From assembly GCF_004402695.1 (NCBI RefSeq), contig NZ_SOFL01000040.1, positions 1 through 64,000 of the forward strand: a DNA stretch of 64,000 nt, written 5' to 3'. The notes beneath the pieces are model-generated. The model did no database searches. It was not told the DNA's origin and worked only from the letters and a program-made list of their open reading frames with translations. Numbering within the stretch: position 1 is the stretch's first letter; each line of letters starts with the position of its first letter. Positions 4,785 through 18,232 of the stretch are shown piece by piece. The translations under genes and the position numbers were made by a program. Source of the stretch: Cryobacterium adonitolivorans (GTDB lineage Bacteria; Actinomycetota; Actinomycetes; Actinomycetales; Microbacteriaceae).

Positions 4785-5908
4785 TGCGAATTCCCGACAA
4801 CACCGGCGCCCGCACGGCCGTGCCCCGCACCGACGGTCCTACGACGTTGCGCACCCTGCTGACCGACAAGCTGGGCTGGCTCGGCCTACGCAGTGCGCAG
4901 ATCCTCCTCGCGCTCGCGCTGGTCGCGGTGGTCATCTTCGTCCTCGTGCAGGTGAAGCTCGTGGTGATCCCGCTGCTGATCGCGATCATTCTGGCGTCAG
5001 CGCTGAGCCCGGTGGTCGGATGGCTGCGCCGCCGGGGGCTCTCGCCCCTTGTGGCCACCTGGGTCACCCTGCTGACCGCCATCATCGTGTTCGGCGGCAT
5101 CGTGACCCTGATCGTCGTCGCCGTCGAAAACCAGTGGAGCGAGCTGGCGACGAGCGCATCCGACGGTATCGACCAGTTGTCCACCTTCCTCACCGAGGGT
5201 CCGCTGGCCGTCGACGCCGCCCAGATCGAGGATGCCCGCAACGCCGGCATCGACTTCCTCACCAGCAGCCAGTTCGGCTCCGGCGCCCTCGCAGGGGTGT
5301 CGGTGGCGACGGAGATCATCACCGGCGCCGTGCTCGTCGTCGTGATCCTGTTCTTCTTCCTCAAGGACGGCGATGTCATCTGGAAGTTCTTCCTGCGTCC
5401 TTTCCGCGGCGAGCGCCTACAGCGCGGTCGCCGCATCGGCACCACCTCGGTGCGGGTGCTCGGCGGGTACGTGCGCGGAACGGCGGTCATCGCCTTCGTC
5501 GATGCCGCCGCGATCGGCATCGGCCTCGCCATCCTCGGGGTGCCGTTGGCGCTGCCGCTGGCGGTCATCGTCTTCCTCACGGCGTTCATCCCGCTGATCG
5601 GTGCGACAGTGGCCGGCATCCTGGCCGCCCTCGTGGCGCTGGTCGCCACCGACTGGATCACCGCCTTGATCGTCGTGGGCATCGTGGTGGTGGTCAACCA
5701 GCTCGAGGGCAACTTCCTGCAGCCCGTCGTGATGGCACAGTCGCTCAAGCTGCACCCGCTGGTGATCCTCGTCGCCCTGACCGCCGGCACGATCCTGGCC
5801 GGCATCATCGGTGCCGTGCTCGCCGTGCCCATCGCCGCCGTCGGCTGGGCCATCGTCAAGACCTGGGACGCCCCGCCGGAGCTCACCGGCCAGCCCAAGC
5901 TGGCCTAG
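4784..5908 (+). CDS. AI-2E family transporter (PerM/YdgG type)
   Basis: 374 residues, mostly hydrophobic. A short charged N-terminus is followed by about eight membrane segments, with a soluble stretch near residues 105-165 (QWSELATSASDG onward) typical of the family. It includes the conserved FFLKDG and the C-terminal NQLEGNFLQPVVMAQSLKLH signature. Members are proposed exporters of autoinducer-2 or ion/solute permeases, so the family name is not proof of substrate. It is convergent with the antiporter gene, 23 bp apart. Confidence 0.88.
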   Translation: MRIPDNTGARTAVPRTDGPTTLRTLLTDKLGWLGLRSAQILLALALVAVVIFVLVQVKLVVIPLLIAIILASALSPVVGWLRRRGLSPLVATWVTLLTAIIVFGGIVTLIVVAVENQWSELATSASDGIDQLSTFLTEGPLAVDAAQIEDARNAGIDFLTSSQFGSGALAGVSVATEIITGAVLVVVILFFFLKDGDVIWKFFLRPFRGERLQRGRRIGTTSVRVLGGYVRGTAVIAFVDAAAIGIGLAILGVPLALPLAVIVFLTAFIPLIGATVAGILAALVALVATDWITALIVVGIVVVVNQLEGNFLQPVVMAQSLKLHPLVILVALTAGTILAGIIGAVLAVPIAAVGWAIVKTWDAPPELTGQPKLA

Positions 5909-5931
5909 CCGCTCCAGCGCTCCGGGCAGCC

Positions 5932-7512
5932 TCAGCCGTCGTGGTGCTTGGGCGATCCGGCCTTGAGCGCGGACTCCTCCACATCGATGAACGCCAGCGC
6001 CGAACGGATGGCCGGCTCCTGGTAGCGGCCCTCCACCCGGGCGGCCAGCACCGCCGCGCGCTCGGCCTCGATCATGGCCCGCCGCAGCCGGTTGTACGCG
6101 GCCGGCAGCGGCTCGGCGTCATCCGGAGCGGGGTTGTCCAGCGCGTTGGCGAGGAAGTGGGCGTTGGTGCGCAACCGGCCGATCACGCGGTCCTCGTCGG
6201 CGTCGGTCACCTCGGCGTCCAGCCGGGCCAGGCCGGCGGTCTGCGCCTCGGCCAGGAGCATCTGCGCCTCGATCCGCTCCTGTGTCCGGTCCGGCGGCGG
6301 CAGGCGCAACCGGCGGATGATCCACGGTAGCGCCAGCCCCTGCAACAGCGTGCCGACCACCACGACGAAGGCCAGCAGCTGCAGGAGCTCGCGCTGGGGC
6401 GTCTCGGGCGGCAGCAGGAAGACGGCGGCGAGGGTGACCACCCCGCGCATCCCCGCGAACGACACGGCCACCCCGGTGCGCCAGCTCCAGCCGCGCTCCT
6501 GTAGCCGCCGCGGTCCGTACCGATAGATCGACGTGGTGATGGCCATCCACACGAAGCGCGACACGAGCAGGGCGGCGAGGACCACCAGGGAGATCCGCAC
6601 GGTGGCCCAGAAGCCGGTGCCGGTGAGCCGGACACCCTCGAGAATCGACTCCAGGTTGAGGCCGATGAACAGGAACACGGCGTTCTCCAGCAGGAACTGG
6701 ATGGTGCGCCAGTTGATCGACTCGGCGATGCGGGCCTCCGCCGACTGGATCACCGGCGCGCGGTAGCCCAGGAACAGGCCGGCGATCACCACCGCCAGCA
6801 CCCCGGACCCGTGCACCAGCTCGCCGAGGATGAACGCCAGGTACGGCGTCACCAGCGACAGGCTGGTGTCGAGCACCGGCGCGTGCAGCTGCCGGCGGAT
6901 CACGGCCAGCACGTAACCGACCGCGAGTCCGACCCCCACCCCGCCGACGACAGCGACGACGAAGTCGCCGGTCACCGAGAGCGGGCTCACCGTGCTGAGA
7001 ATGGCCGCGATCGCAGCGTTCAGGGCCACCAGAGCGGTCGCGTCGTTGAGCAGGCTCTCACCCTCGAGCACCGTGACCACCCGCCGAGGCAGGCCCAGCC
7101 GCCCGGCGATGGCCGTGATCGCCACGGCATCCGTCGGCGCGACGACCGCGCCGAACGCGAACGCGGCGGCGAGCGAAATCGCCGGCACCACCAGCCAGGC
7201 GGTCAGCCCCACGGTCACGACGGTGAAGGCCACCAGGCCCACAGACAGCAGCAGGATGCCGTCCCGCCGGGCCCGCACATCCACGACCGAGGTGCGGATG
7301 GCTGCCGCGAACAGCAACGGAGGCAACAGGCCGTAGAGCACCAGCTCCGGCTCGAGCTCGATCTGCGGCACCGACGGCAGGAACGACGCCGCCGCGCCGA
7401 CTACCACCAGCACGAACGGCGCCGACCAACCGATCCGCCGGGAGAAACCGGTCACGATCACCGTGACCACGACAAACACGACAATCCAGACAATGGTGAT
7501 GACGGGGTCCAT
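5932..7512 (-). CDS. CPA1-family Na+/H+ antiporter
   Basis: 526 residues: about twelve membrane helices, then a C-terminal cytosolic region of roughly 120 residues (from about 405). CPA1 signatures are FGAVVAPTDAVA and EGESLLNDATALV, which carry the acidic residues of the ion site. It exchanges cytoplasmic Na+ (or K+) for protons at the membrane. The start ATG 7512 (MDPVITIVW) puts the first helix at the N-terminus; an upstream in-frame ATG at 7581 would add a basic stretch not expected here. A CATAAT box 7 nt before 7512 supports a leaderless start. Confidence 0.9.
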   Translation of the reverse strand: MDPVITIVWIVVFVVVTVIVTGFSRRIGWSAPFVLVVVGAAASFLPSVPQIELEPELVLYGLLPPLLFAAAIRTSVVDVRARRDGILLLSVGLVAFTVVTVGLTAWLVVPAISLAAAFAFGAVVAPTDAVAITAIAGRLGLPRRVVTVLEGESLLNDATALVALNAAIAAILSTVSPLSVTGDFVVAVVGGVGVGLAVGYVLAVIRRQLHAPVLDTSLSLVTPYLAFILGELVHGSGVLAVVIAGLFLGYRAPVIQSAEARIAESINWRTIQFLLENAVFLFIGLNLESILEGVRLTGTGFWATVRISLVVLAALLVSRFVWMAITTSIYRYGPRRLQERGWSWRTGVAVSFAGMRGVVTLAAVFLLPPETPQRELLQLLAFVVVVGTLLQGLALPWIIRRLRLPPPDRTQERIEAQMLLAEAQTAGLARLDAEVTDADEDRVIGRLRTNAHFLANALDNPAPDDAEPLPAAYNRLRRAMIEAERAAVLAARVEGRYQEPAIRSALAFIDVEESALKAGSPKHHDG

Positions 7513-7525
7513 AGCGACAATTATG
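7512..7525 (-). promoter_or_regulatory. Leaderless promoter -10 box for the antiporter gene
   Basis: CATAAT (7525-7520 on the minus strand) ends 7 nt before ATG 7512, with no ribosome site between. Confidence 0.5.
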
Positions 7526-7640
7526 CGCAACCGGGCGCCGCCGCGGGAGAGGCGGCGCGGCTGCATCCATCCACGGCCCATTGCCGGTTGGTGAGTTGAC
7601 GCCTACGATCCCCAGAAACACGCGAGGAAGCGAGGCGCAC

Positions 7641-8498
7641 ATGGCCGTGAGCACTCTCAAAGAGATCGTCGATCGTGCCTACGCCGAGAAATACGGCGTT
7701 CCCGCGATCAACATCGTGAACGACCTGACGATGGAGGCGGTGCTCGCCGGGGCCGTCGAAGCCCGCTCGCCGGTGATCGTGCAAACCTCTGTGAAGACCG
7801 TCAAGTCGATCGGCTCTGACGTGCTCTTCGCCATGTGGTCGGCGATGACCGCAGGCATCGACGTGCCGGTGGCGCTGCACCTGGACCACTGCCCGGACCG
7901 GGACGTCATCACGGACTGCCTCGAGCGCGGCTGGAACTCTGTGTTGTTCGACGCATCCACCCTGCCTGTGGAGGAGAACCAGCGCCAGACCATCGAGGTG
8001 GTTCGACAGGCCCGTAGCTTCGGCGCTCACGTGGAGGGCGAAATCGAGTCGATCACCGGCGTCGAAGACGGCGTGGGCAGCGACACCGAAGCAGCCAGGC
8101 AGAGCCTCGCCGTGTCGCTCAGATTCCTCGAGGCCACCGGCGTGGACGTTTTCGCGCCGGCGATCGGCAACGCCCACGGGGTGTACAAGCGAGAACCCGT
8201 GCTCGACTTCCAGCGGGTGAGCGACCTCGTCGCCGCCCACCCGATCCCGATCGCCCTGCACGGCGGCAGCGGCATGACCGACGCCCAGTTCACCGACCTC
8301 ATCGCACGGGGCTGCGCCAAGGTGAACATCTCCACGGCGCTGAAGATCACCTACATGAAATCCAACCTCTCCTTCCTCACGGATGCCCAGGCCCGCGACA
8401 AGTGGGACCCACCGTCGCTGTTCGCGAAGGTGCGCACCGACATCGTCAACCTCACCCGGGGACTGGCCGAACAGTTCGGCAGCGCGGGGAAGGCCTGA
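7641..8498 (+). CDS. Class II (zinc) ketose-bisphosphate aldolase family protein
   Basis: 285 residues. Class II aldolase residues are all visible: HLDHC with catalytic Asp82 and zinc His83, the EGE segment near 132-134, zinc His179 in GNAHGVY and zinc His207 in HGGSG, then NIST at 230-232. It should cleave a phosphorylated ketose to DHAP (or dihydroxyacetone) plus an aldehyde. ATG 7641 was chosen for the preceding GAGGAAGCGAGG; an upstream in-frame ATG at 7581 adds unconserved residues. It is the first gene of an operon with a CbbY-like phosphatase, dhaL and dhaK, which argues for a dedicated sugar or polyol pathway rather than glycolysis. Confidence 0.88.
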   Translation: MAVSTLKEIVDRAYAEKYGVPAINIVNDLTMEAVLAGAVEARSPVIVQTSVKTVKSIGSDVLFAMWSAMTAGIDVPVALHLDHCPDRDVITDCLERGWNSVLFDASTLPVEENQRQTIEVVRQARSFGAHVEGEIESITGVEDGVGSDTEAARQSLAVSLRFLEATGVDVFAPAIGNAHGVYKREPVLDFQRVSDLVAAHPIPIALHGGSGMTDAQFTDLIARGCAKVNISTALKITYMKSNLSFLTDAQARDKWDPPSLFAKVRTDIVNLTRGLAEQFGSAGKA

Positions 8499-8499
8499 G

Positions 8500-9288
8500 A
8501 TGCCGGCACTGATCTTCGACTGCGACGGGGTGCTCGCCGACACCGAACGGGACGGGCACCTGCCGGCGTTCAACCAGACCTTCGACGAGTTCGGGGTGCC
8601 CGTGCAGTGGAGTGACTCCGACTATGCCGAGAAGGTGAAGATCGGCGGCGGCAAGGAACGAATGCGGAGCATCCTCACCCCTGACGTCGTGCGCGAGCTG
8701 GGCCTGCCGGAGGACCCGGCGGCCTGGGACGAGACCATCCTCGCCTGGCACCGCCGCAAGACCGCGATCTACACCAACCGGGTCGCCGAGGGGGTGCTGC
8801 CGGCTCGCCCCGGCATCCGTCGCCTCACCGAGGAGGCTGCCGCGGCCGGCTGGACCCTCGCCGTGGCCTCGACCTCGGCCGAGGCGTCGGTGCGGGCTGT
8901 GCTCACCCACGCGGTGGGGCCGGAACTCTCCGCCGGGTTCCACGTCTTCGCGGGCGACATCGTGCCGGCGAAGAAACCCGCCCCCGACATCTACCTGCAC
9001 GCCCTGCGCGAGCTGGGCGTCGACACGAGAGACGCGCTGGTGATCGAGGACAGCGAGAACGGGTTGCGGGCCGCGCTCGCCGCCGGGCTCGCGACCGTCG
9101 TGACCGTGAGCAGCTACACGGCTGAGGAAGACTTCGACGGGGCCACCCTCGTGGTCTCCTCGCTCGGCGACCCCACCGGGCCCGCCGCCGAGACCCTGGC
9201 CGACCCGACCGGCATCCACCCCGGCCCCTATGTGCGGCTGGCGGACCTTGTCACGATCCTCACCCGAACTGGAAGCGAGACACCATGA
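8500..9288 (+). CDS. HAD-superfamily phosphatase, CbbY-like
   Basis: 262 residues. HAD motif I is FDCDGVLAD with Asp7 and Asp9, followed by TERDGHLPAFN, a sequence typical of CbbY (xylulose-1,5-bisphosphate phosphatase) and of the beta-phosphoglucomutase subgroup. Motif III is KKPAPD and motif IV is VIEDSENGLRAA. It probably removes phosphate from a sugar phosphate or bisphosphate in the cytosol. The ATG begins 2 nt after the aldolase stop, and the end overlaps the dhaL start by 4 nt (ATGA). No Rubisco genes are near, so an autotrophic CbbY role is unlikely. Confidence 0.85.
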   Translation: MPALIFDCDGVLADTERDGHLPAFNQTFDEFGVPVQWSDSDYAEKVKIGGGKERMRSILTPDVVRELGLPEDPAAWDETILAWHRRKTAIYTNRVAEGVLPARPGIRRLTEEAAAAGWTLAVASTSAEASVRAVLTHAVGPELSAGFHVFAGDIVPAKKPAPDIYLHALRELGVDTRDALVIEDSENGLRAALAAGLATVVTVSSYTAEEDFDGATLVVSSLGDPTGPAAETLADPTGIHPGPYVRLADLVTILTRTGSETP

Positions 9289-9974
9289 CCAGCCTGGCCG
9301 ACACCGAATTCGTCGTGCACAGCATCGCCCAGACGGCGGTCGACAACGAGAAGCAGTTCGGCGACCTGGACGCCGTCGTCGGCGACGGTGACTTCGGCTA
9401 CTCGCTCGCCAGGGGCTTCGAAATCGTCCTCGCCGACTGGGACGAGTACGACCGCATCAGCCCGAGCGCGTTCCTGCAGAAGGTGGGCATGGTCATCTCC
9501 GGGCGCATCGGTGGGACCTCCGGGCCGCTCTGGGGCACCGCCTTCCTGCGCGCGTCCATCGCCGTCAAGGGTAAGGACGAGGTGAGCGGCACCGACGCCG
9601 TCGCGATGCTGCGCAGCGCGATCGACGGCATCAAGTCGCGCGGCAATTCCGACGTGGGCGACAAAACCCTGCTCGATGCCCTGGTTCCGATGACGGATGC
9701 CCTCGAGGAGGAGGTCGCGGCCGGCACCGATGCGCCCGGTACCCTGCACCGCATGGCCGCTGTAGCCCGGCAGGCCTCCGACCGGACCGCCATGATGCAG
9801 GCCAGACGCGGCCGGGCCAGCTACACCGGGGAGCGCAGCATCGGCTCGCCGGACCCCGGCGCGGTGGCGGTGGCCGTCATCCTTGAGCGACTCAGCGCCG
9901 AGTGGGATGCCCGGGTGGGCTCATCCGCGGCCACCCAGAACGACGCCGAACGGCCATCCAGCCACACAGACTGA
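9285..9974 (+). CDS. dhaL: Dihydroxyacetone kinase subunit DhaL (nucleotide-binding)
   Basis: 229 residues. The Mg-ADP binding GDGDFGYSL, GGTSGPLWGTAF and the late GRASYTGERSIGSPDPGA are the standard DhaL motifs. DhaL supplies the phosphate (ATP or ADP-bound) to the substrate held on DhaK. Start ATG 9285 overlaps the phosphatase stop. About 25 hydrophilic residues after the fold are extra. No DhaM (PTS) gene is present in the window, so an ATP-dependent two-subunit kinase is as likely as a PTS-fed one. Confidence 0.9.
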   Translation: MTSLADTEFVVHSIAQTAVDNEKQFGDLDAVVGDGDFGYSLARGFEIVLADWDEYDRISPSAFLQKVGMVISGRIGGTSGPLWGTAFLRASIAVKGKDEVSGTDAVAMLRSAIDGIKSRGNSDVGDKTLLDALVPMTDALEEEVAAGTDAPGTLHRMAAVARQASDRTAMMQARRGRASYTGERSIGSPDPGAVAVAVILERLSAEWDARVGSSAATQNDAERPSSHTD

Positions 9975-10045
9975 CGTGAATATCGAGCTGAGCGAGTGTG
10001 CTGCACGAGCATCCGACTGACCGAGCACCGCCAAGAGAGGGAGCC

Positions 10046-11041
10046 ATGAAGAAATTCGTCAACGATCCGAAGCAGTACGTTCCGGAGATGCTCAAGGGCA
10101 TCGCGCTGGCCAACCCCGACACGCTGAAGTACGTGCCCGCGTACAACTTGATCATGCGTGCCGACAGCCCCAACCCCGACCGGGTGTCGATCATCCAGGG
10201 CTCGGGCTCCGGGCACGAACCCGCGCACGTGATGACGGTCGGCAGGGGCATGCTCGACGCGGCCTGCCCCGGCGACGTGTTCTCGGCACCGCCGATGGAC
10301 TACGTGTACGAGACCACCAAGCTGCTGGCCTCGCCCAAGGGCGTGCTGTTGCTGGTGAACAACTACACCGGCGACCGGATGGCCTTCGAGATGGCGCAGG
10401 AGCTCAGCGCTGCCGACGGCGTGAAGGTGAAGACCCTGTTCATCGACGACGACGTCGCCGTCCAGGACTCCACCTACACGGTGGGACGGCGCGGGGTGGC
10501 CGGAAACTTCTTCGTGATGAAGGCCGTCGGCGCTGCCGCCGAGCAGGGCGCGGACCTGGACGAGTTGGTCCGGATCGGGGAGAAGGTGGACAGCGTCACC
10601 CGCACCATGGGGATCGCCCTCACCTCCTGCACCCCGCCGGCGAAGGGATCGCCGCTGTTCGAGTTGGGCGAGGATGAGATCGAGGTGGGCGTGGGCATCC
10701 ACGGCGAGCCCGGGCGGCGCCGGGCGAAGCTCACCACGGCGAACGAGATGACCGACGAGATGCTGGATGCCGTCGTGAAGGACCTGCCCTATGTGGCCGG
10801 CGACAGGGTGGCGCTGATGATCAACGGGCTCGGCGGCACCCCGATCAGCGAGCTGTACATCCTGTTCGGGCGGGCGCACGAACGGCTCACCGAGCTGGGG
10901 ATCACGGTGGGACGCAGCTACGTGGGCGAATACTGCACCTCGCTCGACATGGCGGGGGCGTCGCTGACCCTGGTGCGGCTCGATGATGAGATCGAGGCGC
11001 TGCTGGAGGCGCCCGCGGAGATCGCGGTGCGAGTGTTCTAG
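10046..11041 (+). CDS. dhaK: Dihydroxyacetone kinase subunit DhaK (substrate-binding)
   Basis: 331 residues. GSGSGHEPAH and SAPPMDYVYE form the substrate pocket, and His219 in GIHGEPGRR is the histidine that covalently holds dihydroxyacetone as a hemiaminal in this family. With DhaL it phosphorylates dihydroxyacetone or a related short ketose (erythrulose, apulose and similar are known for relatives). The start is at ATG 10046 after AGAGAGGGAGCC. The gene order L then K is the reverse of many operons. A hairpin terminator follows at 11059-11085. Confidence 0.92.
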   Translation: MKKFVNDPKQYVPEMLKGIALANPDTLKYVPAYNLIMRADSPNPDRVSIIQGSGSGHEPAHVMTVGRGMLDAACPGDVFSAPPMDYVYETTKLLASPKGVLLLVNNYTGDRMAFEMAQELSAADGVKVKTLFIDDDVAVQDSTYTVGRRGVAGNFFVMKAVGAAAEQGADLDELVRIGEKVDSVTRTMGIALTSCTPPAKGSPLFELGEDEIEVGVGIHGEPGRRRAKLTTANEMTDEMLDAVVKDLPYVAGDRVALMINGLGGTPISELYILFGRAHERLTELGITVGRSYVGEYCTSLDMAGASLTLVRLDDEIEALLEAPAEIAVRVF

Positions 11042-11058
11042 CCGCGACGCTGGGTGTG

Positions 11059-11085
11059 GGCCGGGCCCGAGGTGCGGGCCCGGCC
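11059..11085 (+). terminator. Hairpin terminator after dhaK
   Basis: Perfect 11-bp stem GGCCGGGCCCG (11059-11069) / CGGGCCCGGCC (11075-11085) with a 5-nt loop, 17 nt after the dhaK stop. No T-run follows. Confidence 0.65.
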
Positions 11086-11173
11086 TACACTCAGGACGTC
11101 CAGCGCGGATGTCGGGCGCGGGTGTCCGGCGTGGACTTCAGGCCCGACTCCGCACGAGCGCACGCGGTGCCGC

Positions 11174-11186
11174 TACTCTGTGGGCA
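11174..11186 (+). promoter_or_regulatory. Leaderless promoter -10 box for the MDMPI gene
   Basis: TACTCT (11174-11179), then 6 nt, then ATG 11186; no ribosome site. Confidence 0.55.
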
Positions 11187-11863
11187 TGAGTGAGACTCCC
11201 AGCGACTGGTCAGACACGGTTTTCGCCTTCGACACGGCCACCAGGTGGTTCGTCGCGGTGACCGCCGGCATCGCCGAGCGCGCCGCCGGAAATGCCGAGG
11301 TCTGGGGGCAGCTGGGCCTGGGCGAGTGGAGTGTGCGCGACCTCGTCGGGCACACCAGCCGGGCCCTCTCCACCATCGAGACCTACCTCGACCTCGCGGC
11401 GGAGGAGGACGCCGTCGGCGTGGCCGCCCCCATCGAGGTCACCTCGCCGGCGGCGTACTTCGAACGCGCGCTCGCCGCGGGAACACCCGAGGTGATCGCG
11501 CAACGCGGTCGGGAGACCGCCGCCACCCTCGGCGCCCAGCCCGCGGTCGCGGTCGCGGCGCTCGCCGCCCGGGTGCTGGCCCGGGTGGCCACCCTCGACG
11601 GTTCCGAGCCGGCCGACACGCCGGCCGGCCGCATCCGAATCGCCGAGTACCTGCCGTCGCGCACCGTGGAACTCACCGTGCACACCAGCGACCTGCTGCA
11701 GAGCCAGGGGGTGCCGGCCGCCGAGCAGACCGTGCCGGAACCCGCCGCCGCCGCGACCCTGCACGTGCTTTCCGACCTGGCCGCCCACAAGGGCCTGGCC
11801 GCGCCGTTGCTGCGTGCCGCCACCGGCCGCGCCCCGCTGCCCGCGGGTTTCTCCGTGCTCTGA
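11186..11863 (+). CDS. Maleylpyruvate isomerase N-terminal (MDMPI/DinB-like) protein
   Basis: 225 residues. The DinB/MDMPI four-helix fold is indicated by GEWSVRDLVGHTSRAL near residue 50 and by VHTSDLL near 165; these histidines form the metal site of mycothiol-dependent isomerases and transferases. The second half resembles the usual MDMPI C-terminal region. The family uses mycothiol, the actinobacterial thiol, but the substrate here is unknown. The gene is monocistronic and ends in a run of TGAGT repeats. It starts directly after a -10 box, so it is probably leaderless. Confidence 0.8.
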   Translation: MSETPSDWSDTVFAFDTATRWFVAVTAGIAERAAGNAEVWGQLGLGEWSVRDLVGHTSRALSTIETYLDLAAEEDAVGVAAPIEVTSPAAYFERALAAGTPEVIAQRGRETAATLGAQPAVAVAALAARVLARVATLDGSEPADTPAGRIRIAEYLPSRTVELTVHTSDLLQSQGVPAAEQTVPEPAAAATLHVLSDLAAHKGLAAPLLRAATGRAPLPAGFSVL

Positions 11864-11885
11864 GTTGAGTTGAGTTGAGTTGAGT
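11861..11885. repeat. TGAGT x5 microsatellite at a stop codon
   Basis: Five exact tandem copies of TGAGT; the first contains the TGA stop of the MDMPI gene. Loss or gain of copies would keep the stop, so the protein is insulated from slippage. Confidence 0.95.
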
Positions 11886-11978
11886 TGCCGTGCGGTGCCG
11901 CGGCGTGCCCTGCGGTGCCGTGGCCTGCGCCTCGTCTCGTGGCGCAGGATGCTCCTGGCTGCGCAGGTCGTTTCTGGC

Positions 11979-12010
11979 GGCGCAGGTTAATCGGCTCACT
12001 AACCTGCGCC
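11979..12010. repeat. Intergenic inverted repeat GGCGCAGGTTA
   Basis: Arms GGCGCAGGTTA (11979-11989) and TAACCTGCGCC (12000-12010) are perfect over 11 bp with a 10-nt loop. A third direct copy of TAACCTGCGCC follows at 12019-12029. It lies in the 440-bp gap between two convergent genes (11864-12304), which contains no gene I can support. Confidence 0.8.
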
Positions 12011-12143
12011 GTGAGCACTAACCTGCGCCGCGAGGCATCTGGTGCGCCGCGAGCGTGCGCGAGAGCTCACTTGTGGCGCCATCGGTAAGCCGCCCCACGG
12101 ATGCCTCTGCGCGCGTCGCTGCCCGTGTCGGTCTCCGCGGCAC

Positions 12144-12193
12144 GTGTTGTACTCGCCGGCACGCGTAAGAACACGTGCCGGCGAGTACAACAC
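12144..12193. repeat. Perfect 20-bp inverted repeat between convergent genes
   Basis: GTGTTGTACTCGCCGGCACG (12144-12163) is exactly complementary to 12174-12193, with the 10-nt loop CGTAAGAACA. There is no flanking T-run on either strand. The position between the convergent MDMPI and helicase genes fits a bidirectional transcription stop. Confidence 0.9.
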
Positions 12194-12242
12194 CTGCCGC
12201 GAGCGCTAACAGGTTCCGGCGGGACAAACACCTGCCGCGAGC
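12190..12242. repeat. Direct repeat ACACCTGCCGCGAGC
   Basis: Two exact 15-bp copies at 12190-12204 and 12228-12242, each followed by a TAA-containing A-rich spacer. A degenerate third unit (GTGCCGCGGGAGC) follows near 12250. Confidence 0.75.
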
Positions 12243-12304
12243 CTTAAAACGTGCCGCGGGAGCAAAAATGTGCCGCCAGGGGAGGCCGGACCTCGGCGGC
12301 CCGG

Positions 12305-15300
12305 CTACGCCAGCGCGGCGGCCTCGTGCGCCTGGCGGGCGGCGTCGAGGGCGTCCAGCTTCTCGGCGAGGCGGTCCAGCACCGCGTCGCGGTCGCCGAG
12401 CCACTCGGGCAGCCACACCCGCTCCACCGCAGGCCAACCCATCAGCCTGGAGAGCACCTCGACGGGCAGGCCGTCCCGGTCGGAGACCGTGCGGCGGGCC
12501 GCCCAGGTGGGGCCGTCGAGCAGCACGGCCATCACCGGATGCCCGGGCGCCCCGGCCGTGGCCACGCTGAGGTCCACCCGGAAGTCGGACAGCCCCACAT
12601 CCGCGTGCACCGCGAAGCCGCGCTCGCGCAGGGCCTCGGCGATCTCCTCCCGGTGCCGGTCCAGGGCCCCGGACTGGCGCAGCGGGCTGGCCAGACCGTC
12701 GGAGCCGCCGGCGGCGAGGTCGAGGTAGGCCCGCAGGTCCTTCACCCCGGCCGAGATGGTCTCCTCGGCGCGCAGGTCGGCGGGTGCGAAGCTGCTGAAC
12801 ACGATCACCTGGCGCCTGGCCCGGGTGATCGCCACGTTCAGGCGGCGCTCGCCGCCGGGCAGGTTGAGCGGACCGAAGTTCAACGGCAGCCGGCCGGAGG
12901 CATCCGCGCTGAACGCCGTGGAGAACAGGATGGTGTCGCGCTCGTCGCCCTGCACGTTCTCCAGGTTCTTCACGAACAGGCCGTCAGTGTCGGTGTCGAG
13001 GGCGTGCACGATGCGATCGTCGCCGCTGTCGCGGAGACTGCCCTCGATGAGGGCCCGCTGCTGCACGTTGAAGGTGATCACTCCGATGGACGGGGTGCCC
13101 TCGGGCTCGGCGGCGAACCGGGCCAGGATCTCGGCGACGATGGCCTGGGCCTCGACCGGGTTGGTGCGCAGGCTCTTGCCCGTGCCGCTGCGCAGGAAGG
13201 CCCCGTCGACCCGGCGGAGGCTCACTCCGTAGCCCGCGGAGCCGGTGCCGGCAGCCGAGCCGGAGCCCGTGCCGGCAGCCGTGCCCGCACCGTGATGCGG
13301 AGCCGGGAACGAGGACAACCGGTCACGGTAGTACGCGCGGTTGCTGAAGGCGATCAGCGATTCATCCTGGCTGCGGTAGTGCCAGGACAGCCACTTGCTG
13401 GGCACCTGGGCCTGCACGCACTCCGACAGGATCGACTCCTCGTCGCGGACGAACTCGAGGGTGTCGCCGTCTTCCTCGCCCGAGCCGATGGTCGACTCCG
13501 CGAACGAGGTGGGCGGCATCTGCTTGCTGTCGCCGACCACCACCACCGAGCGGGCCCGCCCCATGGCGCCGACGGCGTCGGATACCCGCACCTGGGAGGC
13601 CTCGTCGAAGACCACGATGTCGAAAAGGCCGGCCTGGGCGGGGAAAAACCTGGCCACCGACTCCGGGCTCATCAGCATGCACGGCAGGATGTCGGTGATC
13701 AGGTCACCGAACTCGTGCATGAGCTCACGCACCCCCATGCCGCCGCGCTGCCGGTCCAGCTGACGTTTGAGCAGGCCGAGCCTGGCAGCCGTCTCCGCGG
13801 CCGGGCTCCCGGTCGTTTCCCCGGCGGTGTCCGGGGCGGCGCCGATGGTGCGCCGCCGCAGCACGCTGTAAGGGATGAAGGTGGGCAGATGCCGGCGCAC
13901 TGCACCGGATGACGTGGTGAAGCGGGTGATCGAGCGGTTCTGGGCGGCGGCGTCGAACTGGTCCAGGGTGGTGGCCTGTCCGCGTTCGGCGACGGATGCG
14001 GTGGCGAGCCCCTTCTCGAACGCCAGGCCGGCGTCGTCGGCGTCGACCTCGCCGCGGAGGACCGCCGTGTGCGCGGCCGTGAGCCCGAGCCGAGCCAGCG
14101 GTTCGAGGTGTTCGAGCAGGGCGATCCACCGGGTGAGGGTGGGCAACCCCGGCGCCTGCGCGTCGCGTTCCTCGAGGCCGCGGGACCAGACGGCGACCAG
14201 GCCGCCGTCCGCAGCCCACCCGGTGATGGCGGCCGGTCCGGCACCGGTGGCCGTCATCACGGCCTGCAGGGCGAGGAGCGCCCGGTTCAGCGCGGTGGCG
14301 AGAGCCGGATCCGGTTCGGCGGTGGCGTCGAGGTAGTCGCGCAGGGCGGCCACGAAGTCAGCGCCGAGGTCGCGGTGCTCTGACGCGACGACGCCACCGG
14401 CCCAGCGCAGCCATGCGAGGCGGGCGGCGAGCGCGTCCCGGCCGGCGCCGGCGAGGGGGTTCCAGTCGTCCGGAATACTCACGCCGTCGACGGCCCGCAC
14501 CCCGGCCCGCAGGGCGTGCAGCTGGGCCTGGCTGTCGGCGAGCTGGCCGGTGACGGTGGAGAGGGAGCCGAGAGGCACCTTGGCCCCTGGCCGCACCTCG
14601 GCGGCCAGCCGCGCGAACACGGCCTTCCGGCGGCCACGGCGACCGAAGAAGCTTGAGGCATCCGCCGCCTGGGCGTCCCGGTGCAGAGACGCGGCGTCCA
14701 GCCGCAGGGCACCGGGCTCGAGCACGGTCAACGCCGGGTGCTCGGCCTGCGCAAAAGTGGTGGTGGACTGCTCGGCGGCCGCCGCGGCCGCGACCCAGGC
14801 CGGGGAGCGGGTGCTATCGAGAGTGGCCAGCGGCACCCGATCCGCGTCGGCGAGACTGCTCAGGGAGACGAGCTCGGTAGGGCTGGCCGCTGCGGCCACG
14901 ACGCTCGGGGTGGCGGCGACCACCGCGGCGGCGCCAGACCCGGCCGTCTCGTCGGCGCGGGGGAGCGCGGCCAGGGCCTCGTCCAGCTCCAGCGCGGCGC
15001 GGGCAACGGTGGCCAGGTCGAGGGGGGTGGCGGGCGGCGCGGTGATGAACGCCCACGGATGCTGCGGCCGCGGCCGGGCCGGATCGGTCGCCTCTGGCAG
15101 GTCCCGCAGCGTCCGCCGCAGCTCGTCGAGCTCGTCGGCCGTGATGCGCGCGGGCAGGTCGGCCGGCACGGGCAGGGCCCGCACGTCGTCGTCGGCCGTG
15201 AGCTGTGCGGTGCGGGCGGAGTAGAAGGACAGGCCGGCGCCGTTCTGTTCGTGCAACCGGTCGGTGTACCTGGCCAGGCTGCGCCGGGCGGTGCCGAGCA

Positions 15301-17749
15301 CGTCGAGGTCGTTCTTCAGCCCCTGGCCGTCCACCGTCACCTTGTGCTCGAGGGCCTGCCGGATCTGGGCCCGCACGGCGGCGGGCTTGCTGGCCTTGTC
15401 GTGCAGGTCCAGGGCGAACGGGCCCATGCCCACCTCGTTCAGCCGGGCCTGCACCACCTGCAGGGCGGCGCGTTTCTCGGCGACGAACAGCACCTTCTTG
15501 CCCTCGTAGACGGCGCGGGTGAGCAGGTTGGTGATGGTCTGCGACTTGCCGGTGCCGGGTGGGCCCTCGAGCACGAAGGTGCGCTCGGCGATGGCCTCGG
15601 CCACGGCGGCCAATTGCGACGAGTCACCGGGCACCGGGCACTCGGCGCCGAGCGCGTCGAGGTCGGCGGGCGCCGGCAGCGCCACCGGGTCGACGAACGG
15701 CTGGGTGGGGGTGTGCACGAGGTGGCTCACCAGGGAGTTCTCGGCCAGCGTCTGCCAGTTCTCGTCGAGGTCCTTCCAGAGCCGGAACTTGGCGAACTGC
15801 AGGATCGACAGGTCGAGGGTCTCCTCGACCCGGTAGGGCAGCCCGGCCGCCAACAGCGCCTCGCGGGTGGCGCGGAACGCGGCGGCCAGGTCGATGCCGG
15901 CGGTGTCGATACGGGCAGCGTCCCCGGCGGTGTCGGCGACAGGGGTCGCCAGGCCGTCGATCGTGAGGCCGTGCAGCTGCCGGAGCTTCTCGAGCAGGCA
16001 GTAGTTGGGCGTGGATGCCCCGGCCTCGTCGAGCCGCACCCTGTAGTCGCCGCCGCGGCCGGCCGCTTCGAGCACCACGGGAACGAGCACCAGTGGGCTG
16101 CGGAGTTCCCGGTCGTTCGCGGTCCAGACCAGCGAGCCGAAGGCCAGGTAGAGGTTGTTGGCGCCGGTCTCCTGCACCACGGTGCGGGCCTTGTAGGCCA
16201 GCGCCCGCAGCTTGGTGGCATAGGCGGCGTCGGTAACGTCGGCGTAGACGGCCTTCTTGTCGGCGAGCACCGCCACGAGCTGGTCGACGGGCAGGTCCCG
16301 GCCGAACCGGATGCCGCGCTCCCGGTCGGTCGTCGTCATCCGGTCGGCGGGCAGCAGGGTCAACCCGGTGCCGCCGGTCACGAGGTCTTCGACACCGGCC
16401 AGATGCTGGTCGGGCACCGTTAGTGCGAGGGCGCCGCGTTCGGTGAAGTTGATCAGCCGGTTACGCAGACTCAGGTCGAGCAGGGCGTTCTTCCACTGGG
16501 TGATTCGGGGCGGCGTACTACTGGGCGGCGTGCTCAGGGACGGGCTGGTCGGGGCCCCGGCGGCGCTCGCCGCATCCGCCCCGGACGCCGCGCCGGTGCC
16601 GCCGGGCGAGACGATCGCCGGCCGGTACTCGGTGACGACCACGGTGCCGTCGCCGGTCACGGTGCGGGCGGGCAGCGGCAGGATGTGCGTGCGCCGCGCC
16701 TGCACCACGTCGACCACGCCGATCACGGTGTCCAGATCGGCGAGCCACTCCAGGTAGGGGGAGCGCTGGGCCTGCGCGAAGGTGACCGGAGTGCCGGCGC
16801 CATGGTCGGTGACCTGGGTGGTCTCCACGAGCCGGATCAGGTCGAGGTCGATGAGGTTGATCACCTCGGCCACGTCGGTGAGCGCGGGCGCGCCGAGGGT
16901 CTCCTCTTCACGCCAGTAGCCGAGGAACGCGTGCCCGGCGACCACCCACAGCAGTGGATGCAGCCCGGCCTGCTCGAGGGCGGCGGCCATCACGACGACG
17001 GTGTCGAGGCAGGTGCCCACCCCGCCCACCCCGCCCGCCCCGCCCCGGTCGGCCGTGCCCAGCACCTCGCCGGGCGTGCGCACCTTCTGGCCGTCGTCGG
17101 ACCAGCTGGCCGGCGGGGTGGCGTAGCGGATGCCGCGGGCCCGCATGGCCACGAACACCGACTCGACCACCTGGTCGACCCGGTCGGGGCCCGACTGGTA
17201 GCCGGGCATCGCTGCCGAGCCGGTGCGGGCCTCGAGCGCCGCGGCGGCCTCGTCCAGCAGGACCGCGATCTCGGGGTGGTTGGGCAGCACGTGCGCCGAG
17301 AGCATCTCCAGCGCCAGGTCCACGGGCTGGGCGATCCACTGTTGGGCGGCGAGCAACTGGATGGGCTCGCCGGCCTCGGCTACGACGATGCCGTCGATGA
17401 GCAGGCTGGCCCGGATCTCGGCCGGGCGCTGCTCCTCGATGAGCAGCATGGCGGCGGGGTCGACGGTGAGGGAGACATCCGTGAAGGTGGCGGTGCGCTC
17501 GGCGGCGAGGTCCACGAGCAGGTCACGTGCGCTGCCGAGGGTGTCGCCGGCACTGAGCACCTCGAGCCGTAGCACGGCCTCCCGCACGGCGGGACCGCGG
17601 TTGTCGACGCCCACCCGGCCGACCACGTTGATGCGGTTGTGCGCCAGGGCGTAGCTGAGCACCGGCGTCGCGGTCAGCGAGAGGGTGATCAGACCGGAAC
17701 CGCGGATGGCTGACTCAGTGACAATCGAATCCAGCTCTGTCGATTCCAT
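12305..17749 (-). CDS. Giant DUF4011-type SF1 helicase with C-terminal nuclease-like domain
   Basis: 1814 residues. In order: a beta-rich N-terminal region; a transglutaminase-like stretch with GTCLDTVVVMAAAL and GHAFLGYW (about residues 240-275); a DUF4011 start at WKNALLDLSLRNRLINFTER (about 418); Walker A GPPGTGKSQ (about 730); Walker B DEASQ (about 1383) and GDSKQMPP; motif V VQGDERDTI; motif VI VAITRARRQ (about 1640); and a C-terminal RE_MTES_1575/Vsr-like domain (about 1705-1814) with FRVDLSV and DRDGLPVEVL. It probably translocates on nucleic acid with ATP. Relatives with a DUF4011-helicase-Vsr layout are reported as single-gene anti-phage systems. The start ATG 17749 has GAGGAG before it. 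The nuclease part reads LLDGP where ECDG is usual, so cleavage is doubtful. Confidence 0.85.
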   Translation of the reverse strand: MESTELDSIVTESAIRGSGLITLSLTATPVLSYALAHNRINVVGRVGVDNRGPAVREAVLRLEVLSAGDTLGSARDLLVDLAAERTATFTDVSLTVDPAAMLLIEEQRPAEIRASLLIDGIVVAEAGEPIQLLAAQQWIAQPVDLALEMLSAHVLPNHPEIAVLLDEAAAALEARTGSAAMPGYQSGPDRVDQVVESVFVAMRARGIRYATPPASWSDDGQKVRTPGEVLGTADRGGAGGVGGVGTCLDTVVVMAAALEQAGLHPLLWVVAGHAFLGYWREEETLGAPALTDVAEVINLIDLDLIRLVETTQVTDHGAGTPVTFAQAQRSPYLEWLADLDTVIGVVDVVQARRTHILPLPARTVTGDGTVVVTEYRPAIVSPGGTGAASGADAASAAGAPTSPSLSTPPSSTPPRITQWKNALLDLSLRNRLINFTERGALALTVPDQHLAGVEDLVTGGTGLTLLPADRMTTTDRERGIRFGRDLPVDQLVAVLADKKAVYADVTDAAYATKLRALAYKARTVVQETGANNLYLAFGSLVWTANDRELRSPLVLVPVVLEAAGRGGDYRVRLDEAGASTPNYCLLEKLRQLHGLTIDGLATPVADTAGDAARIDTAGIDLAAAFRATREALLAAGLPYRVEETLDLSILQFAKFRLWKDLDENWQTLAENSLVSHLVHTPTQPFVDPVALPAPADLDALGAECPVPGDSSQLAAVAEAIAERTFVLEGPPGTGKSQTITNLLTRAVYEGKKVLFVAEKRAALQVVQARLNEVGMGPFALDLHDKASKPAAVRAQIRQALEHKVTVDGQGLKNDLDVLGTARRSLARYTDRLHEQNGAGLSFYSARTAQLTADDDVRALPVPADLPARITADELDELRRTLRDLPEATDPARPRPQHPWAFITAPPATPLDLATVARAALELDEALAALPRADETAGSGAAAVVAATPSVVAAAASPTELVSLSSLADADRVPLATLDSTRSPAWVAAAAAAEQSTTTFAQAEHPALTVLEPGALRLDAASLHRDAQAADASSFFGRRGRRKAVFARLAAEVRPGAKVPLGSLSTVTGQLADSQAQLHALRAGVRAVDGVSIPDDWNPLAGAGRDALAARLAWLRWAGGVVASEHRDLGADFVAALRDYLDATAEPDPALATALNRALLALQAVMTATGAGPAAITGWAADGGLVAVWSRGLEERDAQAPGLPTLTRWIALLEHLEPLARLGLTAAHTAVLRGEVDADDAGLAFEKGLATASVAERGQATTLDQFDAAAQNRSITRFTTSSGAVRRHLPTFIPYSVLRRRTIGAAPDTAGETTGSPAAETAARLGLLKRQLDRQRGGMGVRELMHEFGDLITDILPCMLMSPESVARFFPAQAGLFDIVVFDEASQVRVSDAVGAMGRARSVVVVGDSKQMPPTSFAESTIGSGEEDGDTLEFVRDEESILSECVQAQVPSKWLSWHYRSQDESLIAFSNRAYYRDRLSSFPAPHHGAGTAAGTGSGSAAGTGSAGYGVSLRRVDGAFLRSGTGKSLRTNPVEAQAIVAEILARFAAEPEGTPSIGVITFNVQQRALIEGSLRDSGDDRIVHALDTDTDGLFVKNLENVQGDERDTILFSTAFSADASGRLPLNFGPLNLPGGERRLNVAITRARRQVIVFSSFAPADLRAEETISAGVKDLRAYLDLAAGGSDGLASPLRQSGALDRHREEIAEALRERGFAVHADVGLSDFRVDLSVATAGAPGHPVMAVLLDGPTWAARRTVSDRDGLPVEVLSRLMGWPAVERVWLPEWLGDRDAVLDRLAEKLDALDAARQAHEAAALA

Positions 17750-17962: not shown

Positions 17963-18232
17963 ATGGCACTCGAAGCTAATGCTAAGAAGGCGATCATCGA
18001 AAAGTACGCTACCCACCCGGGCGACACGGGTTCCCCCGAAGTCCAGATTGCAATGCTCACGCAGCGCATTCTCGACCTCACGGAGCACCTCAAAGAGCAC
18101 AAGCACGACCACCACTCGCGTCGTGGCCTGCTCCTCCTGGTTGGTCAGCGTCGCCGTCTGCTCGGCTACCTGTCCGACGTGGACATCAACCGTTACCGCT
18201 CGCTCATCGAGCGTCTCGGCCTGCGCCGCTAG
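17963..18232 (+). CDS. rpsO: 30S ribosomal protein S15
   Basis: 89 residues, the standard length. The motifs [26 protein letters not shown] and QRRRLLGYL are those of S15, which binds 16S rRNA helix 22 and nucleates the platform of the small subunit. The start ATG 17963 follows GAGAAAGGGG. A strong terminator lies 40 nt after the stop. pnp, which usually follows rpsO directly, is about 9.8 kb downstream here. Confidence 0.98.

What the first reader, a model, noticed from the sequence alone, without database searches (positions are those of the whole stretch)
12305..17749. Stand-alone 1814-residue DUF4011 helicase as a candidate anti-phage system
The domain order (N-terminal transglutaminase-like region, DUF4011, SF1 helicase, Vsr/RE_MTES-like end) resembles single-gene defence proteins described as DUF4011-helicase-Vsr (named Hhe in defence catalogues, from memory). 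It lies alone between two hairpin-rich gaps, in a region of otherwise ordinary genes. The transglutaminase-like Cys/His stretch (GTCLD and GHAFLGYW) is an unexpected extra domain.
Basis: partly seen in the sequence, partly recalled or inferred. Interest (0 to 1): 0.6.

Follow-up and report, generated by a model that had tools for sequence, protein, structure and literature searches.

The report
Truncated ProA-type anti-phage helicase in Cryobacterium
The gene is real and belongs to a named family of giant anti-phage helicase proteins called ProA; in one branch of the cold-loving bacterium Cryobacterium it lacks the family's usual C-terminal tail and is an inherited gene at one fixed place beside a ribosomal-protein gene, rather than a mobile defence gene.

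Summary
The 1814-residue ORF is real (12305-17749, minus strand). The domain order holds: Ig-like sandwich, transglutaminase-like (TGase) domain, DUF4011, UPF1-like SF1 helicase, Vsr-like MTES_1575 domain. It is not Hhe: NCBIfam scores it 1575 bits as "anti-phage protein ProA" (cut-off 1500) and 541 as Hhe (cut-off 2000). The TGase fusion is not unexpected: a 2013 paper describes it for MTES_1575 of Microbacterium testaceum; the 2162-aa protein I take to be MTES_1575 aligns here at 50% identity.

What differs: the C-terminal wHTH/DUF3320 end is missing (as is the N-terminal HEPN, which most relatives lack too). The same short form occurs in 12 of 57 Cryobacterium genomes, always at the same site beside rpsO; those 12 are one clade in a marker tree. 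Five other genomes show the site empty. Synonymous divergence matches the neighbouring genes; dN/dS is 0.21 overall, 0.15 in the MTES domain. So it is a vertically inherited, selected gene. Helicase motifs and the TGase Cys and His are intact; the MTES domain lacks the E and H of its best canonical relative, as ProAs generally do.

Best reading: fixed innate ProA-type defence. Domestication to another role is not excluded. No phage assay was possible.

The parts
12305..17749 (-). short ProA gene, 1814 aa
   Evidence: ORF and coding bias; NCBIfam NF058533 ProA 1575.1 bits, cut-off 1500
17339..17680 (-). residues 24-137: Ig-like beta sandwich
   Evidence: AlphaFold model pLDDT 89; VIA-align matches over model 1-114 to domains of dextranase, GH2 enzymes, arrestin and factor XIII, Z about 9-10
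16670..17338 (-). residues 138-360: transglutaminase-like domain, C247, H273, D292 (roles recalled)
   Evidence: fold matches PNGase 3esw Z 9.5 and 3kd4 Z 9.4; weak Transglut_core/DUF553 hits in family members; C247 and H273 in 12 of 12 short copies
15983..16483 (-). residues 423-589: DUF4011
   Evidence: PF13195
15347..15625 (-). residues 709-801: start of the helicase with Walker A GPPGTGKS (729-736)
   Evidence: PF13086; K735 in 89 of 89 homologues aligned
12794..13609 (-). residues 1381-1652: helicase motif II (FDEASQ) to motif VI (NVAITRARRQ); motif names recalled
   Evidence: PF13087 over 1438-1652; D1382 and E1383 in 89 of 89
12356..12649 (-). residues 1701-1798: MTES_1575 Vsr-like endonuclease fold, without the E and H of the best canonical relative
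   Evidence: PF18741; fold matches; columns 1743 and 1750
17963..18232 (+). rpsO (ribosomal protein S15), divergent neighbour that marks the fixed site
   Evidence: PF00312; same neighbour in the 11 other short copies
9998..11863 (+). Dak1 (9998-11041) and MDMPI_N-domain gene (11054-11863), convergent neighbours on the other side of the site
   Evidence: PF02733, PF11716; synteny
11936..12283 (.). intergenic inverted and 19-nt direct repeats downstream of the gene

Best explanation
It is a short ProA: a single-chain anti-phage-family protein in which an ATP-driven UPF1-like SF1 helicase with DUF4011 (shown by sequence) loads on or scans nucleic acid (inferred), and a C-terminal Vsr-like fold plus an N-terminal transglutaminase-like domain act as output (inferred). 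In the usual family member a C-terminal DUF3320/wHTH end follows, and about a third have a long N-terminal extension (a HEPN RNase domain in the two cases scanned); here both are absent, and the missing C-terminal end is what sets this clade apart (shown). Synteny, trees and divergence show that the gene was in the ancestor of one Cryobacterium clade and has been inherited vertically at the rpsO site under purifying selection. I think it still works as a fixed, innate defence: the helicase senses abnormal or invading DNA and the TGase-like domain and/or residual nuclease fold disable it or the cell. The TGase site keeps Cys and His. The nuclease site lacks the E and H of its best canonical relative, so cleavage by that domain is doubtful and it may mainly bind DNA.
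For: Passes the curated ProA cut-off over residues 32-1811. Aligns at 50% identity over residues 23-1803 with the 2162-aa M. testaceum StLB037 protein, which carries HEPN_Swt1 and DUF3320 and which I take to be MTES_1575, filed as modification-independent defence in PMC3710099 (passages). Patchy family distribution, as for defence genes: 28 of 299 Microbacteriaceae, 14 of 396 in the phylum, the window's genome counted in both. One of three long Cryobacterium copies outside the rpsO site whose neighbours were scanned (G038, L026) lies beside a type IV restriction enzyme (PADLOC mREase_IV, 765 bits). Helicase residues K735, D1382, E1383 invariant in 89 of 89. Median dN/dS among the 12 short copies 0.21 whole, 0.20 TGase, 0.125 DUF4011, 0.15 MTES, so the shortened protein is kept by selection.
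Against: No phage assay. The window neighbours are ordinary; 0 of 10 further ORFs near the site in relatives matched PADLOC, and for the other two long copies (L027, L029) 0 of 5 neighbouring ORFs did. The gene is present in every member of its clade (12 of 12), which fits a core function as well as fixed immunity. The part proposed in 2013 to recognise invading DNA (wHTH) is absent. The family's nuclease domain lacks two residues of the canonical relative.
Confidence: 0.55

Rival explanations
1. Domesticated ProA: the shortened protein left defence and became a clade-specific housekeeping factor in DNA or RNA processing (for example clearing stalled nucleic-acid structures in the cold), which is why it is fixed beside rpsO.
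For: 12 of 12 clade members carry it at one site; divergence and dN/dS like the neighbouring genes HAD, Dak2 and MDMPI; 8 of 9 splits shared with the marker tree; C-terminal DUF3320/wHTH end lost.
Against: The 45 other genus genomes lack the short form; the TGase Cys and helicase motifs are kept; defence genes can also become fixed; no functional link to rpsO is shown.
Confidence: 0.3
2. Modification-independent restriction enzyme: the Vsr-like domain of the short protein actively cuts invading DNA during helicase translocation.
For: Vsr-like fold; D1745, R1752, D1757, R1758 invariant in the 87 of 89 homologues with letters there; purifying selection on the domain. The 12 non-ProA MTES rows aligned also lack the H, so its absence need not mean an inactive enzyme.
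Against: The E and H of the canonical VECDGEFWH stretch (L211) are replaced: column 1743 is never E, column 1750 is H in 1 of 87; D1726 is E in the G038 short copy; the wHTH end is missing.
Confidence: 0.1
3. It is an Hhe system.
For: Shared DUF4011, helicase and Vsr-like end; Hhe models match in part.
Against: 541 bits against a cut-off of 2000 in NCBIfam; PADLOC Hhe 373 bits against 809 for PDC-S37.
Confidence: 0.02
4. A decaying remnant of a longer defence gene.
For: C-terminal end missing relative to the long forms; left gap full of repeats.
Against: Long open frame in all 12 genomes; dN/dS 0.12-0.22 in the Ig-like, TGase, DUF4011, helicase and MTES parts, looser only in a helicase insert (0.32) and the linker 361-410 (0.71); no clear remnant of the C-terminal end found in the 12 loci.
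Confidence: 0.03

Closest known systems
ProA, 'anti-phage protein ProA' (NCBIfam NF058533; the original paper was not found, and a link to the DefenseFinder system Prometheus is my guess from the name)
   Same: Passes the equivalog cut-off (1575.1 vs 1500 bits) over residues 32-1811; same domain order
   Different: The match stops at model position 1716-1717 of 1903: the C-terminal DUF3320/wHTH end is absent
MTES_1575-type giant proteins (Anantharaman et al. 2013, PMC3710099; passages read; author name recalled)
   Same: TGase, SF1 helicase and Vsr-like REase in one chain; 50% identity over residues 23-1803 to the M. testaceum StLB037 protein L138
   Different: No N-terminal HEPN_Swt1 and no DUF3320, both of which L138 has
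Hhe (PADLOC, NCBIfam NF042953)
   Same: DUF4011, SF1 helicase, Vsr-like end
   Different: Far below the curated cut-off (541 of 2000 bits)
PADLOC candidate PDC-S37
   Same: Best PADLOC match, 809 bits over 415-1809
   Different: The match does not reach residues 1-414 and ends at profile position 1349 of 1550; the name is in 0 papers of the library
Core DUF4011 gene flanking cDHS1 of Pseudomonas aeruginosa (PMC10250203, passages read)
   Same: A DUF4011 gene found in every isolate at one site
   Different: It borders a defence hotspot; no defence gene was found beside this one among the ORFs tested. Sequence relationship not tested

Membership tests
ProA (NCBIfam NF058533) | score over the curated equivalog cut-off of 1500 bits | tested here: met
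   1575.1 bits; 1575.3 in the genome search
ProA (NCBIfam NF058533) | match over the full model, to position 1903 (DUF3320/wHTH end) | tested here: not met
   match ends at 1716-1717; no DUF3320 in P0001 while the four long copies scanned have it (L026, L029, L030; L138)
ProA (NCBIfam NF058533) | protection against phage | not testable with these tools
   no assay; no phage-protection paper for ProA found
MTES_1575-type giant defence protein (PMC3710099) | TGase-like domain upstream of an SF1 helicase and Vsr-like REase | tested here: met
MTES_1575-type giant defence protein (PMC3710099) | N-terminal HEPN domain | tested here: not met
   no HEPN in P0001, 22 residues before the first shared column against 224 in L138; HEPN_Swt1 in L138
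MTES_1575-type giant defence protein (PMC3710099) | two C-terminal wHTH domains overlapping DUF3320 | tested here: not met
   20 residues after residue 1794, against 241 in L138
Hhe | score over the curated cut-off of 2000 bits | tested here: not met
   541.1 bits
transglutaminase-like superfamily | fold with Cys, His and Asp | tested here: met
   two fold matches at Z 9.4-9.5 and weak profile hits in relatives; C247, H273, D292 present; activity not testable; Cys is replaced in 20 of 88 homologues with a letter there
Vsr/MTES_1575 endonuclease | canonical catalytic residues | tested here: inconclusive
   acidic residues kept; E and H of the best canonical relative absent; the H is also absent in 12 of 12 non-ProA MTES rows, and E is kept in 4 of those 12; which residues are essential in ProA is unknown

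The most novel reading that the evidence does not exclude
A ProA-type giant defence helicase was tamed: in the ancestor of one Cryobacterium clade it settled at the rpsO site, shed the invader-reading wHTH end, carries no HEPN toxin domain, and is now a core gene whose transglutaminase-helicase engine serves a constitutive role, so that one genus holds patchy long forms and a fixed short form, in G038 both side by side (and in G041, where the long one is split).
Probability: 0.3. Interest if true: 0.5.

Novelty: new variant of a known kind. Interest (0 to 1): 0.33.

Why it matters
ProA-type proteins are very large single-gene defence candidates whose working is open as far as my searches show. 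A natural short form, kept by selection without the C-terminal wHTH end, shows which part can be spared and gives a more compact protein for biochemistry. A genus with a fixed short copy, patchy long copies and empty sites also allows a direct test of whether a defence gene can become core.

Tried and rejected
Degeneration special to this copy: I first thought the MTES domain had decayed in the window. The alignment shows the same stretch in the five long Cryobacterium copies and near-invariant columns in 89 homologues, so it is a family trait and the idea was dropped.

Defence island at the rpsO site: PADLOC gave 0 hits for 10 ORFs around the site in relatives (L015, L016, L022, L024, L072) and 0 for L030's two neighbours and L024's first ORF; Pfam calls L030's and L028's neighbours rhodopsin-like and zinc alcohol dehydrogenase. 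Rejected for the ORFs tested; not every ORF was tested, and the window's own neighbours were scanned with Pfam only.

rpsO nearness as a wider rule: one non-Cryobacterium genome, G096, has a short ProA (1714 aa, 39% identity) about 2.8 kb from rpsO. Comparing the coordinates by eye, none of the other 38 genomes in which rpsO was found has the two within 100 kb on one contig (many have them on different contigs, so nearness across a contig break is not excluded). So no rule; recorded as a curiosity. A family-wide search with the G096 protein failed twice; its genus holds one genome.

Remnant of the lost C-terminal end: tblastn of long C-termini against the 12 short loci gave only short pieces (E 0.019 or worse), none just downstream of ProA in the window.

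Solved-structure searches by sequence found no convincing relative of either end (best E 0.36 and 0.45). Foldseek's top 50 for the N-terminal model named no transglutaminase-fold protein except factor XIII. Literature: ProA's founding paper was not found; the passages naming Prometheus in four papers give no protein description.

The named set is the best 80 kept of 201 relatives, so it is a capped list. Upstream of rpsO is not readable in G039 (contig end, L060); that genome shows only the core paralogue. The structure alignments hold 35 and 36 sequences that I picked out of the 89.

Full report
The ORF. The reading frame 12305-17749 on the minus strand is open for 1814 codons from ATG and has the codon-position GC pattern of a gene. 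The window lies in G000, contig C32, a 3.67-Mb genome in 58 contigs.

Domains. Pfam: DUF4011 423-589, AAA_11 709-801, AAA_12 1438-1652, MTES_1575 1701-1798. By sequence the helicase is closest to SMUBP-2 and then UPF1 among solved structures. AlphaFold models were built from alignments of the window protein with family members: residues 24-420 (35 sequences, pLDDT 89) and 1655-1814 (36 sequences, pLDDT 72). The first has an Ig-like sandwich (model 1-114), which fills nearly all of the listed matches, and a domain that aligns with yeast PNGase (Z 9.5, 157 residues, 3.8 A) and the putative protease 3kd4 (Z 9.4, 136 residues, 3.1 A); that both carry a transglutaminase-like core is recalled. These are two rows of 50, and the tool notes that Z 7-8 is common without kinship. 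Weak profile hits in family members agree, although the window's own N-terminus matches no Pfam family. The second model aligns with I-Bth0305I (Z 10.1), NGO0050 (Z 9.9) and Vsr (Z 7.9). Foldseek alone gave E 0.016 at best, so the C-terminal assignment rests on Pfam and the aligner together.

Name. NCBIfam: ProA 1575.1 bits (cut-off 1500), Hhe 541.1 (cut-off 2000). PADLOC: PDC-S37 809 bits, Hhe 373. So it is ProA by the curated rule and not Hhe. I could not find the paper behind the name ProA; DefenseFinder's 'Prometheus' may be the same system, but that is a guess. The architecture is older in print: PMC3710099 (2013; [quoted passage not shown] testaceum, and proposes modification-independent defence with the wHTH end recognising invading DNA. 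The 2162-aa ORF of M. testaceum StLB037 in L138 fits the residue numbers given there, so I take it to be MTES_1575. It aligns with the window protein at 50% over window residues 23-1803 and carries HEPN_Swt1 and DUF3320.

What is missing. In 89 homologues (12 short and 5 long Cryobacterium copies, 72 named others) the 12 short copies have 20 residues after window residue 1794. Of the 77 others, 74 have 164-419; the exceptions are L085 and L145 (split ORFs) and L123 (90). At the N-terminus 24 of the 77 others have an extension of 170 residues or more before the first shared column; HEPN was scanned for and found in two such proteins (L138; L242). The short copies have 22-81 residues there in 11 rows and none in L023, but their closest long relatives, G011 and G021, have only 7. 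So lack of HEPN is common in the family, and the loss that marks this clade is that of the C-terminal DUF3320/wHTH end. Short forms also occur outside the genus: L241 (1799 aa), L243 (1714 aa) and L242 (1931 aa, with HEPN) show no match to the long C-termini by blastp; DUF3320 was scanned for by Pfam only in L242, and not found. So the end has been lost more than once or is separable.

Active sites. K735 of Walker A, D1382 and E1383 are identical in 89 of 89. C247 is Cys in 68 of 88 homologues with a letter there, including all 12 short copies; 17 have Pro, 2 Ser, 1 Ala, 15 of these 20 being Blastococcus. So the TGase site looks dead in part of the family but is kept here. In the MTES domain D1745, W1749, R1752, D1757 and R1758 are invariant in 87 of 87 with letters; D1726 is D in 85 and E in 2, one of them the short copy of G038. 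The best-scoring MTES match among 60 genomes, L211, reads RIDL...VECDGEFWH; ProAs read VDLS...VLLDGPxWA, with no E at column 1743 and H at 1750 in 1 of 87. That E and H matter for catalysis in Vsr-like enzymes is recalled, not tested, and tells only so much: the 12 non-ProA MTES rows aligned also lack the H, and 4 of them keep the E.

Distribution. With the ProA model, 16 of 57 Cryobacterium genomes pass the cut-off. Twelve carry the short form (the 11 others 81-92% identical to the window). Long forms are intact in G001, G011, G021, G038 and G051, and partial or split in G005, G007, G015, G023 and G041. All 57 also have a DUF4011-type helicase of roughly 1250-1400 aa, about 180-210 bits to the model (split and lower in G007, interrupted in G043), a core paralogue; PF13195 itself was tested for it only in G000:C35. 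In the family 28 of 299 genomes, 17 of 85 genera, have ProA at E 1e-200, in the phylum 14 of 396, both counts with the window's genome. In plasmids 318 records match at E 1e-50, none over 80% of the protein and the best over 48%; in phages one record.

Site. All 12 short copies lie between MDMPI/Dak1 and rpsO, on the strand opposite to rpsO. Reading the rpsO site in the other genomes shows Dak1, with or without the MDMPI gene, next to rpsO without ProA in G001, G007, G015, G030 and G051: empty sites. G011 and G021 hold a long ProA (65% identity) between Dak1 and rpsO with a rhodopsin-like gene and an alcohol dehydrogenase beside it. In a FastTree of the core paralogue's DNA the 12 genomes form one clade (SH-like support 1.0). 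In the ProA tree the 14 rpsO-site proteins form one clade (support 1.0), apart from the other Cryobacterium long copies tested. Inside the 12, 8 of 9 splits agree between the trees, though several have low support in the ProA tree (0.04-0.66). The marker is one gene and itself a DUF4011 helicase, with a stop inside the fetched stretch in G024, G043 and G048, so it is a gene tree used as a stand-in for a species tree. Because G011 and G021 are far from the 12 in that tree, either the site was occupied early and lost often, or the locus was exchanged between lineages; I cannot decide.

Selection. Among the 12 copies mean pS is 0.30, as in the flanking genes FBA, HAD, Dak2, Dak1 and MDMPI (0.29-0.33; rpsO 0.05), so the gene is as old at the site as its surroundings. 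Median dN/dS is 0.21 whole, 0.22 Ig-like, 0.20 TGase, 0.125 DUF4011, 0.20 helicase, 0.32 helicase insert 900-1180, 0.15 MTES, 0.71 in the linker 361-410; FBA 0.07, Dak1 0.06, MDMPI 0.17, Dak2 0.18, HAD 0.24. The protein is under ordinary purifying selection, including its doubtful nuclease domain.

Mechanism. Shown: helicase motifs, TGase residues, Vsr-like fold, absence of both end modules, vertical fixation, purifying selection. Inferred: ATP-driven engagement of nucleic acid, and an output through the TGase-like domain or the Vsr-like fold. I favour fixed innate defence (0.55) over domestication (0.3) because the family is named for phage defence, its distribution is patchy, one long copy (L026, one of three such loci scanned) lies beside a restriction enzyme, and the other 45 genus genomes do without the short form. 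The clade-wide fixation, the ordinary neighbours and the missing end speak the other way, and only a phage assay can settle it.

Print status. DUF4011, DUF3320 or MTES_1575 occur in 6 papers of the open library, none on Cryobacterium by title (listing). Cryobacterium with 'defense system' and phage gives one paper, on Antarctic soil viruses (listing only). I found no description of the short form within those searches; most subscription papers and preprints are not held.

Noticed in passing
window 11936-12283: Intergenic 19-nt units (such as CACTAACCTGCGCCGCGAG) in direct and inverted order forming long hairpins. A degenerate form with up to 2 mismatches occurs 6 times in the genome, 3 of them here and 2 at C51:130049-130089, against 2 for the reversed control.
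   Followed up: partly
L243 (G096, another Microbacteriaceae genus) 5040-14209: A divergent short ProA (1714 aa, 39% identity) lies about 2.8 kb from rpsO on the opposite strand, as in Cryobacterium, with a convergent alcohol dehydrogenase gene beside it. 1 of 39 non-Cryobacterium genomes compared, so possibly chance.
   Followed up: partly
G000:C35:56745-60137: A DUF4011-type helicase of 1252 aa whose counterparts were found in all 57 Cryobacterium genomes searched (split in G007, interrupted in G043), a candidate housekeeping relative of defence proteins.
   Followed up: no
ProA residue 247 in L087, L091, L096-L098, L104, L105, L109, L110, L113, L118-L120, L122, L123, L129, L133, L140, L142, L151: The transglutaminase Cys is Pro, Ser or Ala in these 20 homologues, 15 of them Blastococcus, although the surrounding stretch is kept: likely natural catalytic-dead variants.
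   Followed up: partly
L030:4695-13211 and L028:4540-13079: The long ProA at the rpsO site of G011 and G021 is preceded by a rhodopsin-like gene and followed by a zinc alcohol dehydrogenase in the same direction; in L030 the latter overlaps ProA by 4 nt.
   Followed up: partly
L015, L016, L022 between rpsO and the fructosamine-kinase gene: About 5 kb of extra genes (an ApbE-family gene in L015) lie where the window has 0.2 kb; no PADLOC match in the ORFs tested there.
   Followed up: partly
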